Origin: Bifidobacterium catenulatum subsp. kashiwanohense JCM 15439 = DSM 21854
GTDB lineage: Bacteria; Actinomycetota; Actinomycetes; Actinomycetales; Bifidobacteriaceae
DNA length: 64,000 nucleotides
Assembly: GCF_001042615.1 (NCBI RefSeq)
Contig: NZ_AP012327.1
Location: 1,364,001 to 1,428,000, forward strand
Reading direction: 5' to 3'
Both the position numbers and the translations under genes were made by a program. Below, one piece after another: positions 36,795-64,000 of the stretch (its first letter is position 1; each line of letters starts with the position of its first letter). Under the pieces are notes generated by a model, which was not told the DNA's origin, did not search any database, and worked only from the letters and a program-made list of their open reading frames with translations.

Positions 36795-38210
36795 TCAGCG
36801 GCAACGCTTGGTGAGCGGCTGCCATGGATCGAGTTCCACCGGTTCGGATTCCAACAGCGCGCGAGTGGCGTCGTCGAGGTATTCCCTGCGGATGATAATC
36901 TCGGTCACATAGCGGTCGAACCATGCGTCGGAGGCCACGTAGTAGCCGTCCTCGCCGTTGTCCTTGCCCCAGCTGTTCTCCACCTTCCAGCGGTTCGGCT
37001 TGCCTTGTTCATCAAGGTTTACGCCGGTAATGGTCATGGCATGGTTGCTCGGGCTGTCACCGTATTCGAGGCCGTGCGCCTTGTCGAAATCGAAATCGGT
37101 GCCGAACAGCTGGTCCACGCGCACGCTGTCGCAGTCGAAATAGCCGGCCGCGCGTAGCGAGAATTGGGTGCAGTCGCAGGCGAACCAGATCGGATGGCCG
37201 GCGCTGATCTGGTTGACGGCGGCCTTCTTGAACACGTCGAGCGGCACGTTGACGAATTCCATATCCTCCGCTTCGGCGACATTGGCGGTGTAGCGAATGC
37301 GGTAGCGCTTGTTGAACGGGCGGGATTTCATCGGCACGTTGCACAGCGTCACCAGATCATCGACGTCCACCGGCACGTATTTCCTGTAGAATTCCATCGG
37401 CGTGATGCCGGTCTCACGGATCTGCCTGCGCTCGTCCTTGCCGGTCTTTGGATTGTCGGACTTTCCTTCGTCGGCTTTCTTGTCGTTTTTCTTGTCATCG
37501 TCGCTCACGCGAGCCAGGAAGTCGAACCTCTCCGGCGGCTCACCAAGCGAGATGGCGCACATGCGGTACACGGTGGACATGTCGTCTTCCTTGACCGACC
37601 GCAACTCTTCAATCGAAGCTCCAGCGGCATGGCGTCCGCGCAAATCCGCCGCGAACTGACGCAGCCTGCTGTTGAGATACTGTTTGAATGCGTCGGAATC
37701 CTTGGAATTGGCGGATTCCGGATATGCGTTCTTCGGCACAAGACCGTACTTGTCAACAAGGGCGGCGAACATCTGCCACCAACCGCCATCGTCGGCCGGA
37801 CCATAGTTGATCTCCTGGAACAGGCGGCTGTCGGTCGGCTCGTCGAGCGTGGAAAGCACGTTCTCAAGATATGCGTTGGATTTCTCCATCGCATCCCAGA
37901 AGAACAGGTAGGTTTCGGAGAATTCGAAATCGTCAAGTCCCCATTTGTGCATGAGCTCATAACGCAGGGCGTTGAGGGACGCGAACATCCAGCAGCGGCC
38001 CGATCTACGTTGGTTGGTGATGGAGCCCTGCTTCAGTTCTATGGAGAAGTCGCGCGGCAGCGAGCGCTGACCCTTGTAATCAGTGGCAGCTTCGAGCACG
38101 CCCGCAGATACCGCCGCGTTGGCCGCCACGAGATTGGCGCGGTCTGCGTTGAAGTCCTTGGCGTATTGCATGAGACGTTCCGATTTGATTGCCTTGTTAT
38201 TGTTTGTCAT
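36795..38210 (-). CDS. pepC: Aminopeptidase C (bleomycin hydrolase family, C1B)
   Basis: The 471-residue papain-fold peptidase has the catalytic cysteine C73 in SGRCWMFASLNAL, the histidine in SNHAMTITGVN and the asparagine in WKVENSWG. It trims N-terminal residues from peptides in the cytosol as a hexamer. An inserted lysine/aspartate-rich stretch (DDDKKNDKKADEGKSDNPK, about residues 235-255) is unusual for the family. The upstream 360 bases carry a repeat cluster rather than another gene. Confidence 0.92.
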   Translation of the reverse strand: MTNNNKAIKSERLMQYAKDFNADRANLVAANAAVSAGVLEAATDYKGQRSLPRDFSIELKQGSITNQRRSGRCWMFASLNALRYELMHKWGLDDFEFSETYLFFWDAMEKSNAYLENVLSTLDEPTDSRLFQEINYGPADDGGWWQMFAALVDKYGLVPKNAYPESANSKDSDAFKQYLNSRLRQFAADLRGRHAAGASIEELRSVKEDDMSTVYRMCAISLGEPPERFDFLARVSDDDKKNDKKADEGKSDNPKTGKDERRQIRETGITPMEFYRKYVPVDVDDLVTLCNVPMKSRPFNKRYRIRYTANVAEAEDMEFVNVPLDVFKKAAVNQISAGHPIWFACDCTQFSLRAAGYFDCDSVRVDQLFGTDFDFDKAHGLEYGDSPSNHAMTITGVNLDEQGKPNRWKVENSWGKDNGEDGYYVASDAWFDRYVTEIIIRREYLDDATRALLESEPVELDPWQPLTKRCR

Positions 38211-38280
38211 ATCGCCGATATTCGCCGTATGCCTTGACAGAAAGGCACGTTTCAGCCCCCATTTCGTCCTGTCCCAATTC

Positions 38281-38516
38281 CATTTCGCTTATATGTGGCA
38301 GATTCAGCCACTTGCGGAAAACCATTTCGCTTATATGTGGCAGATTCAGCCACTTGCGGAAAACCATTTCGCTTATATGTGGCACTTTCTTCCACGCCAG
38401 CGCCTCCATACCCTCGGGAAAATACCCCCTTGTACGGTTTTCCCCAAAAGCATCTGCCACATATAAGCGAAATGACATCAGGCGGAATGGAGAATCTGCC
38501 ACATATAAGTGATTTG
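38281..38516. repeat. Cluster of five copies of a 20-bp motif, part of a 42-bp tandem repeat
   Basis: CATTTCGCTTATATGTGGCA occurs exactly at 38281-38300, 38323-38342 and 38365-38384, at a 42-bp period; the whole 42-bp unit is tandemly repeated twice plus a partial copy. A perfect inverted copy lies at 38455-38474 and a 17/20 inverted copy at 38497-38516. Within the full units GTGGC and GCCAC can pair over a 7-base loop. A related copy lies at 63852-63871. The cluster fills the gap between divergent pepC and the HNH nuclease gene. Confidence 0.85.
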
Positions 38517-38573
38517 ACTTCGATTTGCGGGTACGCTGATAGCGTGTGAGAGTTTGGAGATGAGGAGCATATC

Positions 38574-39569
38574 ATGCGTCGTCACAATTCGATGATGTCC
38601 GTATTGTCCGGATTGCTGGCCGTGGGGTTGGTTGTCGGCTTATCGGCTGGATCCGCGTTGGCCGTGGAACCGACCGATAATACCGGTGCCGGACAGAGCG
38701 CCACTCAAGCGCTGGATTCGTTGGAGGTCAAAGGCCGCGCCCCGAAGACAGGGTATAAGCGCACGCAATTCGGCAAGGCATGGGCCGATGTGGATCACAA
38801 CGGTTGCGATACGCGTAACGACATCCTCAACCGTGATCTGACTGACGTGAAGCATAAGGTGCGTACGCACGATTGCGTGGTGGAATCCGGCCAACTGCAT
38901 GATCCGTATACCGGCAAGGATATCGCATTCAAGAAGGGATGGAAGACCTCCACAGCGGTACAGATCGACCATGTGGTGGCGTTGAGCGACGCATGGCAGA
39001 AGGGCGCGCAGAAACTCAGCCAGACGAAGCGTACCGAACTGGCGAATGATCCGTATAATCTGCTGGCGGTACAGGGAAAGGCCAACCAGAAGAAGTCGGA
39101 TGGCGATGCGGCCACGTGGTTGCCGTCCAACAAAAGTTTCCGTTGCGAATATGTGGCACGTCAGATTGGTGTGAAGCACAAATATTCGCTGTGGATCACG
39201 CAGGCCGAGAAAGAGGCCATATCCAAGGTATTGTCCTCCTGCCCGACGCAGACCGTGCCCGATTACACGGGAGTCAAGGATTCTACAGTCGAGAAGACCA
39301 CCGAATCCGAGCAGACAGAACAGACGCAGACCGAACAGCAGACCGAACAATCAGCTGAGCAGGCCCAGCAGAATCAGCAAACGACACAGGCACCTGCACC
39401 CGAACCCGCTCCGGCTCCAGCTCCCGCGCCCCAGCCAGCGCCACAGCAGGACGTCTACTACCAGAACTGCACCGCGGCACGAGCCGCTGGCGCCGCACCT
39501 ATCTACCAGGGTCAGCCGGGCTACCGTTCACAACTGGACCGCGATCATGACGGAGTCGCCTGCGAATAA
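38574..39569 (+). CDS. Secreted HNH nuclease with C-terminal Excalibur domain
   Basis: The 331-residue protein has a signal peptide (about residues 1-30, ending GSALAVEP). The HNH/DUF1524-type nuclease domain contains DVDHNGCDTRNDIL, the core QIDHVVALSDAWQKGAQ and NDPYNLLAVQGKANQKKSDG. A Gln/Thr/Glu and Pro/Ala-rich linker leads to an Excalibur calcium-binding module (NCTAARAAG and the D-D-D loop DRDHDGVACE). It probably acts outside the cell on free DNA or RNA. The start is the ATG at 38574, preceded by GATGAGGAG. Confidence 0.88.
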   Translation: MRRHNSMMSVLSGLLAVGLVVGLSAGSALAVEPTDNTGAGQSATQALDSLEVKGRAPKTGYKRTQFGKAWADVDHNGCDTRNDILNRDLTDVKHKVRTHDCVVESGQLHDPYTGKDIAFKKGWKTSTAVQIDHVVALSDAWQKGAQKLSQTKRTELANDPYNLLAVQGKANQKKSDGDAATWLPSNKSFRCEYVARQIGVKHKYSLWITQAEKEAISKVLSSCPTQTVPDYTGVKDSTVEKTTESEQTEQTQTEQQTEQSAEQAQQNQQTTQAPAPEPAPAPAPAPQPAPQQDVYYQNCTAARAAGAAPIYQGQPGYRSQLDRDHDGVACE

Positions 39570-61860: not shown

Positions 61861-61979
61861 ATCCCGATGGGCCGTCCCAAACATCGACCGCCGACACGAA
61901 TCCAAAGTGGTACTGGCCATTGCGGGATCTTGAAAACGGCCACTTCGCTTGTTTGAGGCATACGAACGCCGAAACACGA

Positions 61980-62011
61980 AGTATGGGCGTTGGAATTCCA
62001 ACGCCCATACT
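61980..62011. repeat. Perfect 32-bp palindrome
   Basis: AGTATGGGCGTTGGAA is followed directly by its exact reverse complement, with no loop. It lies between the repeat-protein fragment and the phosphoesterase gene. With no T run it is a poor classical terminator. It may be a bidirectional terminator, or a binding or recombination site. Confidence 0.85.
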
Positions 62012-62133
62012 CGCCATAATCGGCAAACGGTGCCACAAACAAGCCAACAAGCATTTTGGGGAGGGCTATTCGTGCGATGTTGCGCTCTATCATTGATAAA
62101 AGCATCCAGCAACCGCATATAGTAAGGAATCGC

Positions 62134-63785: not shown

Positions 63786-63851
63786 CTTCTCTTGACTCTG
63801 CGGGGTGGTATCCGCCCTTACGTATGGCAGATTTCACCCCGCGTCCCCATG

Positions 63852-63871
63852 CATCTCGCCTATATATGGCA
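63852..63871. repeat. Diverged copy of the 38281 repeat motif
   Basis: CATCTCGCCTATATATGGCA matches 17 of 20 bases of the motif repeated at 38281-38516. Shorter related stretches (TATGTATAAGGCAGAT near 63936 and CTGCCCTATATACATA near 63973) follow. Confidence 0.6.
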
Positions 63872-63884
63872 GGTCTTATAGATA

Positions 63885-63929: not shown

Positions 63930-64000
63930 GCTCCTATGTATAAGGCAGATAGCATCGGACAGCCTCGTGAATCTGCCCTATATACATATATAGCTGAGTT

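What the first reader, a model, noticed from the sequence alone, without database searches (positions are those of the whole stretch)
38281..38516. Five-copy directed and inverted 20-bp repeat between pepC and a secreted nuclease
Three direct copies at exact 42-bp spacing and two inverted copies fill the promoter region of two divergent genes; a 17/20 copy recurs at 63852. Spacing of four helical turns suits protein binding on one DNA face. The inverted copies could fold into a large stem. It is neither CRISPR (no unique spacers) nor a terminator.
Basis: seen in the sequence. Interest (0 to 1): 0.55.

Follow-up and report, generated by a model that had tools for sequence, protein, structure and literature searches.

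The report
Bifidobacterium four-site palindromic intergenic repeat
The repeat is one copy of a family of short, non-coding, mirror-like DNA elements scattered between genes in many bifidobacteria, built from four copies of a protein-binding-like site nearly always 42 bases apart; what binds it and whether it still moves is unknown.

Summary
The five repeats between pepC and a GmrSD_C/Excalibur gene form one member of a dispersed Bifidobacterium element family. The commonest form (71 of 99 elements collected) has two ~22-bp units per arm, inverted, around a core. The window copy has a third left unit from an exact 42-bp duplication; relatives carry one or two at the same locus. The "17/20 copy" at 63852 belongs to a second, degraded element; a third lies at 61940-62051.

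Unit spacing is 42 bp in 166 of 170 pairs, of 39-46 bp allowed, while spacers diverge (38% identity in the own genome; shuffled 25%). In one homogeneous set the outer arms show no compensatory change, the inner arms and core do. This fits phased protein-binding sites around a hairpin-prone core better than one RNA stem.

Elements occur in 23 of 112 genus genomes, are enriched between convergent genes and are lost through short repeats. No transposase partner, target duplication or published description was found in the searches made. Best reading: an old MITE-like element bound by a dedicated protein; main rival: a host docking site.

The parts
38280..38302 (+). left arm, outer unit (unit 1)
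   Evidence: exact copy
38322..38344 (+). left arm, duplicated unit (unit 2); 38280-38321 and 38322-38363 are identical 42-mers
   Evidence: G037 and G040 hold two left units here, G019 one
38364..38386 (+). left arm, inner unit (unit 3)
   Evidence: exact 20-mer, unit matrix
38387..38452 (.). core between the inner units, 66 bp, holding TACCCCC, the reverse complement of the GGGGGTA motif seen in many related cores
38453..38475 (-). right arm, inner unit
   Evidence: exact 20-mer, unit matrix
38495..38517 (-). right arm, outer unit, 3 mismatches in the 20-mer
   Evidence: also in G019, G037 and G040
63809..63831 (+). second element, left outer unit (degraded)
   Evidence: unit matrix 11.5; half-element model 46 bits over 63815-63876
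63930..63952 (-). second element, right inner unit (degraded)
   Evidence: unit matrix 13.2
63972..63994 (-). second element, right outer unit (very degraded, weak)
   Evidence: loose pattern hit at 63973 and model hit 63939-63984; the unit matrix did not find it even at score 4
61940..62051 (.). third element, one unit per arm (61940-61962 +, 62029-62051 -) around a palindromic core; units score only 8.9 and 13.9
   Evidence: aligns with an element at the same place in genome G029 (L302)

Best explanation
It is one copy of a Bifidobacterium family of non-coding intergenic elements, mostly 186-197 bp, with four ~22-bp asymmetric units (core TTATATRTGGCAGATT in the outer ones), two direct repeats per arm, the arms inverted around a core. 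Shown: architecture, near-fixed 42-bp phase, unit conservation over diverged spacers, dispersal, presence/absence and unit-number differences between genomes. Inferred: each unit is the site of one dedicated DNA-binding protein; the four sites lie on one face of the DNA and the core bends or extrudes, giving a compact nucleoprotein complex; the family spread as a non-autonomous (MITE-like) element moved in trans, by an enzyme that leaves no recognisable target duplication. In the own species it now looks mainly inherited, with units gained and lost by recombination or slippage between repeats, which explains three left units in the window copy, two in G037 and G040 and one in G019.
For: Unit spacing 42 bp in 84 of 88 left and 82 of 82 right pairs; inner gap mostly 56-57 (25), 65-67 (67) or 76 (3) of 99, about 10-bp steps. 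Between non-orthologous elements of the own genome unit cores are 85-92% identical, spacers 38% against 25% for shuffled spacers. Dispersed copies in 23 of 112 genus genomes. Enriched between convergent genes, 24 of 52 against 68 of 350, P 7e-5, and clustered, as described for pneumococcal mobile repeats (PMC3049150, passages). Different subfamilies occupy the same intergenic region in different species with different junctions in the two pairs compared. One element present in G000 and G037, absent in G019 and G060. Within a homogeneous set the outer arms do not covary.
Against: No binding protein and no mobilising enzyme identified. No target duplication of a fixed length in 55 elements; a weak general flank similarity (z up to 3.3) was seen over many windows. 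No clean recent insertion shown; same-genome copies in G000 are at most 74% identical. Some elements are old and positionally conserved (seven genomes at the amidohydrolase locus; L302), which a host function would also explain. Inner arms and core do covary, and in a heterogeneous set of 23 the outer arms were coupled too, though so were all other unit pairings. The half-element model and the spacing finder were built around 42 bp (39-46 allowed), so elements of another spacing would be missed.
Confidence: 0.55

Rival explanations
1. A host-maintained chromosomal docking site: a Bifidobacterium DNA-binding protein (nucleoid, insulator or segregation type) uses some tens of such sites per genome, and the site sequence co-evolves with the protein.
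For: Fixed phase and unit conservation in old loci; an element kept at the same place in up to seven genomes; species-typical unit sequence (for example AGGTGGCT inner units in G045 and G059); no target duplication.
Against: Most elements are not shared in position between species in the sample; complete loss in close relatives; 89 of 112 genus genomes gave no hit at E<=0.01 with this model.
Confidence: 0.25
2. A transcribed RNA hairpin or bidirectional terminator/processing signal.
For: Strong folding (z -9.8 and -13.9); inner arms and core covary; convergent-gene excess.
Against: Outer arms (491 of 500 shuffles at least as high) and spacers (500 of 500) show no compensatory change; the window copy lies between divergent starts; separate terminator-like hairpins lie beside some elements (seen by eye in L179 and L165); no Rfam match overlapping an element in the four loci searched.
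Confidence: 0.08
3. An attP-like recombination site: arm units bind an integrase and the core is the exchange site, possibly bounding gene cassettes.
For: Layout of paired arm units around a core; neighbouring elements enclose accessory genes in several loci.
Against: The 9 Phage_integrase matches of the own genome are not close to the element clusters (nearest about 8 kb); published MIC repeat letters differ; no cassette exchange shown.
Confidence: 0.05
4. A local operator for pepC and the nuclease gene.
For: Lies 69 and 56 bp from the two gene starts; unit number differs between relatives.
Against: The same element lies in many unrelated intergenic regions; in G027, G029, G051 and G059, which hold both genes, no unit was found between them.
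Confidence: 0.05

Closest known systems
BOX, RUP and SPRITE small interspersed repeats of Streptococcus pneumoniae (PMC3049150, passages read)
   Same: Short (<200 bp typical), intergenic, able to fold, enriched between convergent genes, found in clusters; BOX is modular with variable copy number of one module.
   Different: Unrelated sequence and genus; BOX and RUP make target duplications, none was recognisable here; four phased copies of one unit in nested inverted order are not described there in the passages read.
REPIN/REP elements with RAYT transposase
   Same: Dispersed extragenic inverted repeats.
   Different: The own genome has no Y1_Tnp match; 4 of 23 element-bearing and 3 of 89 other genus genomes have one. 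REPIN features are recalled, plus abstracts in listings.
Mobile integrase cassette of B. longum (PMC2430713, passages) and RIT elements (PMC3414803, passages)
   Same: Bifidobacterium mobile element with inverted repeat and palindrome.
   Different: Its published 20-bp palindrome and 96-bp repeat have other letters, and it carries three integrase genes; none was seen in the elements here.
Phage attP / intasome sites (recalled)
   Same: Paired arm sites on both sides of a core.
   Different: Many dispersed copies, no integrase gene beside them in the loci examined; not tested biochemically.

Membership tests
MITE / non-autonomous mobile repeat | short, non-coding, dispersed, inverted-repeat structure | tested here: met
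   99 distinct elements, mostly 144-197 bp; 23 of 112 genus genomes
MITE / non-autonomous mobile repeat | target site duplication | tested here: not met
   no fixed-length duplication in 55 elements; weak general flank similarity only
MITE / non-autonomous mobile repeat | autonomous partner with the same ends | tested here: inconclusive
MITE / non-autonomous mobile repeat | presence/absence at orthologous sites | tested here: met
   L114 element present in G000 and G037, absent in G019 and G060; L179 element present in G019 and G037, absent in G060; direction of change not settled, the first junction fits deletion
REPIN/RAYT | Y1 (RAYT) transposase in the genome | tested here: not met
   own genome none; 7 of 112 genus genomes
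B. longum mobile integrase cassette | published repeat letters and integrase trio | tested here: not met
   letters in PMC2430713 legend compared by eye
CRISPR | unique spacers between direct repeats | tested here: not met
   the first two 42-bp periods are identical; inverted copies
structured RNA | compensatory change in the helices | tested here: inconclusive
   outer arms no, spacer no, inner arms and core yes; relatedness not corrected
phased protein-binding array | a protein that binds the unit | not testable with these tools
   inferred from phase and conservation only

The most novel reading that the evidence does not exclude
A Bifidobacterium-specific four-site docking element for an unknown DNA-binding protein that organises or insulates the chromosome, or acts as a recombination boundary for accessory genes (element pairs enclose a macro-domain gene, DUF559 and Wadjet genes in some genomes); its unit sequence turns over in a species-typical, concerted way while the 42-bp phase stays fixed.
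Probability: 0.2. Interest if true: 0.75.

Novelty: new variant of a known kind. Interest (0 to 1): 0.5.

Why it matters
In the paper searches made here (open-licence library, listings) no such repeat is described for bifidobacteria. The near-rigid 42-bp phase makes a clear, cheap prediction (one protein reading several sites on one DNA face), and natural unit-number variants at the pepC locus give ready reporters. If the units serve a recombinase, they bear on genome plasticity in a widely used gut genus; if a host protein, they point to an unknown chromosome-organising system.

Tried and rejected
Mobile integrase cassette / RIT: set aside on the published repeat letters (passages); the own genome's 9 Phage_integrase matches lie at least about 8 kb from the element clusters.

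REPIN/RAYT: set aside. Rfam: three sub-threshold hits in the four loci searched, none overlapping an element. Viral contigs (one exact 18-base pattern), plasmids and phages (the 261-bp window copy only): no match.

Autonomous transposon with the element as its ends: the 3-kb pairs in L103-L108 looked like one, but each end is a complete 2+2 element with ordinary genes between. Neighbour function: recurring neighbours were orthologous loci and LacI-type regulators. Window locus in more distant species: longer, different intergenic DNA. L180 locus: uninformative, part of the left flank is multicopy in G027. Two distinct arm classes by spacer: 18 of 29 mixed, P 0.18, not established, though the pairing shuffle points that way.

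Limits. The 99 elements are a convenience sample from top-scoring hits, partly orthologous to one another (33 non-redundant 2+2 elements; 55 flanks). The finder accepted unit spacing of 39-46 bp and inner gaps of 20-110 bp only. A2 holds 29 elements chosen for length exactly 196 from G029, G045 and G059; other lengths there (for example 152, 161, 195) and other subfamilies were left out. and one search used stricter filters and scored a capped number of candidates (44 and 16 per genome), so the 44 matches of G059 are a cap, and its contig C1 repeats itself mirror-wise. Gene calls come from a simple ORF rule. The output was cut in the middle; its list is sorted, so the top same-genome pairs were seen. 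Orthology of solo units (L110, L111) with fuller elements was judged by eye from flanks. The name of the gene beside the third element was not searched in a library.

Full report
OBSERVATION. The 20-mer lies at 38281, 38323, 38365 (+), 38455 (-) and, with three mismatches, 38497 (-); 0.01 matches are expected by chance in the window. The first two copies sit in a perfect 42-bp tandem duplication and the two inverted copies are also 42 bp apart. The array separates pepC (36795-38210, -) from a GmrSD_C + Excalibur gene (38574-39569, +). In the own genome (2.34 Mb) 19 places match at <=3 mismatches, none for the reversed pattern.

ANATOMY. Reading the other places showed that units mostly come as an element: two direct units, a core, two inverted units. 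A sequence model of one half gives 36 hits at E<=1 in the own genome, including solo and half copies. A unit matrix run over the loci fetched by then gave 99 distinct elements: 71 with 2+2 units, 15 with 2+1, 10 with 1+2, 2 with 1+1 and one with 3+2, the window. Among unit pairs 39-46 bp apart, which is what the finder accepted, spacing is exactly 42 in 84 of 88 left and 82 of 82 right cases. The inner gap is 56-57 in 25, 65-67 in 67, 76 in 3, and 22, 31, 72 and 108 once each. The unit is strongest in TATATRTGGCAGATT and freer in its first nine bases.

DNA OR RNA. The array folds strongly as one strand (z -9.8; -13.9 with DNA parameters for L149), which any inverted repeat would. In 29 equal-length elements (A2) the whole mirror structure pairs no better than shuffled (76.4 against 77.4%). 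Taken apart, outer arms (491 of 500 shuffles at least as high) and spacers (500 of 500) show no compensatory change; inner arms (15 cells changed on both sides against 6.9, 0 of 500) and core (51 against 31.9, 0 of 500) do. In a mixed set of 23 non-redundant elements every unit pairing, outer-outer included, is coupled, which I read as subfamily structure. So the outer units look conserved as sites, while inner arms and core behave like a hairpin or are corrected against each other. Between elements of the own genome spacers are 38% identical (33-57% in the other genomes; shuffled 25%) while unit cores are 85-92%, yet spacer length hardly changes. I infer selection on phase, as for a protein reading several sites on one face of the DNA.

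DISTRIBUTION. Hits at E<=0.01 occur in 23 of 112 genus genomes. A strict two-unit pattern in the species collection gave 37 stretches, all Bifidobacterium: erythrocebi, merycicum, pongonis, ruminantium and sp. N4G05 (records of the own genome may be left out there). In 297 genomes of the order 2 matched, both of this genus (stricter filters). No match in viral contigs to one exact pattern, nor of the window copy in plasmids or phages.

DYNAMICS. At the pepC locus the left arm has three units in the window genome, two in G037 and G040, one in G019 (same species). Another element is present in G000 and G037 and absent in G019 and G060, with the same junction at a unit-like direct repeat in both; deletion is the simpler reading. 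Solo units in G000 (10985, 175119) lie where relatives hold fuller elements (L111 against L167 and L174; L110 against L172; by eye). Different subfamilies occupy the same intergenic region in different species: L170/L209 against L117/L181, L171 against L116, the amidohydrolase locus over seven genomes, L172 against L192. For the two pairs compared base by base the junctions differ, so independent insertion and wholesale replacement are both open. Elements are enriched between convergent genes (24 of 52 gene pairs with an element against 68 of 350 without, P 7e-5) and clustered in the own genome (7 of 22 gaps under 4 kb, 0.85 expected, weak hits included; strong hits only, 2 of 12, P 0.026). 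No fixed-length target duplication was seen in 55 elements, only a weak general flank similarity. The closest same-genome pairs reach 88-93% in G045 and G059, one of them in a duplicated segment and two flanking the same genes; in G000 none exceeds 74%. I have therefore shown turnover, not a recent jump.

MECHANISM. Most likely each unit binds one protein, and four sites in phase bring the arms together around a bent or extruded core. That the protein is, or was, a recombinase moving the element in trans rests on the pattern of a mobile repeat and on analogy, not on a found enzyme. A host protein using the sites would explain conservation at old loci equally well. I put 0.55 on the first and 0.25 on the second.

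COMPARISON. The nearest described kind are small interspersed repeats such as pneumococcal BOX, which are also enriched between convergent genes, clustered and modular (PMC3049150, passages); BOX makes target duplications, which I did not find here. B. longum mobile integrase cassettes carry other repeat letters (PMC2430713, passages); RIT elements were compared from passages of PMC3414803. REPIN/RAYT fails for lack of the transposase in the own genome. Paper searches for the letters and for a Bifidobacterium interspersed palindrome gave no description (listings only).

VERDICT. A real, widespread and, as far as these searches go, undescribed element family; the local promoter reading is not the main story. 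New variant of a known kind, interest 0.5.

Noticed in passing
L304:8233-15661 (genome G006) and L291:1-3287 (genome G045): A Wadjet-like system (DUF3375, DUF4194, SMC-like Walker B protein, JetD_C) lies between two elements in G006; in G045 one element sits between the SMC-like gene and the JetD gene and another follows JetD.
   Followed up: partly
L109:1995-5029 (own genome, about 2057.5-2060.5 kb): Four solo unit-like hits within 3 kb around a PemK/MazF-like toxin and a YafQ-like toxin gene; relative G037 has fuller elements there (L175).
   Followed up: partly
L103-L108 and L299: A DUF559 gene and an amidohydrolase-like gene lie between two complete elements in six genomes (L103-L108; order inverted in G037), and a similar pair by eye in G029 (L299); several of the genes end within about 3 bp of the element edge.
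   Followed up: partly
L298:933-2054 (genome G029): A macro-domain gene (157 aa) stands alone between two complete elements.
   Followed up: no
L114:13165-15001 (own genome, about 1896.2-1898.0 kb): A protein with AAA_14, DUF4143 and TIR_2 matches in one reading frame, cut by the end of the stretch.
   Followed up: no
G059 contig C1: Element hits near the two ends are mirror images (such as 8021 and 228354, 19486 and 216890), suggesting a palindromic contig or assembly artefact.
   Followed up: no
L214:6166-6844 / L309 (genome G069): Two complete elements of different subfamilies lie 286 bp apart in one intergenic stretch.
   Followed up: no
A2 core, columns 74-123: Cores of the G045/G059 subfamily are near-perfect palindromes around GGAATTCC, some over 40 bp (for example L146), and the third window element shares this core.
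   Followed up: partly
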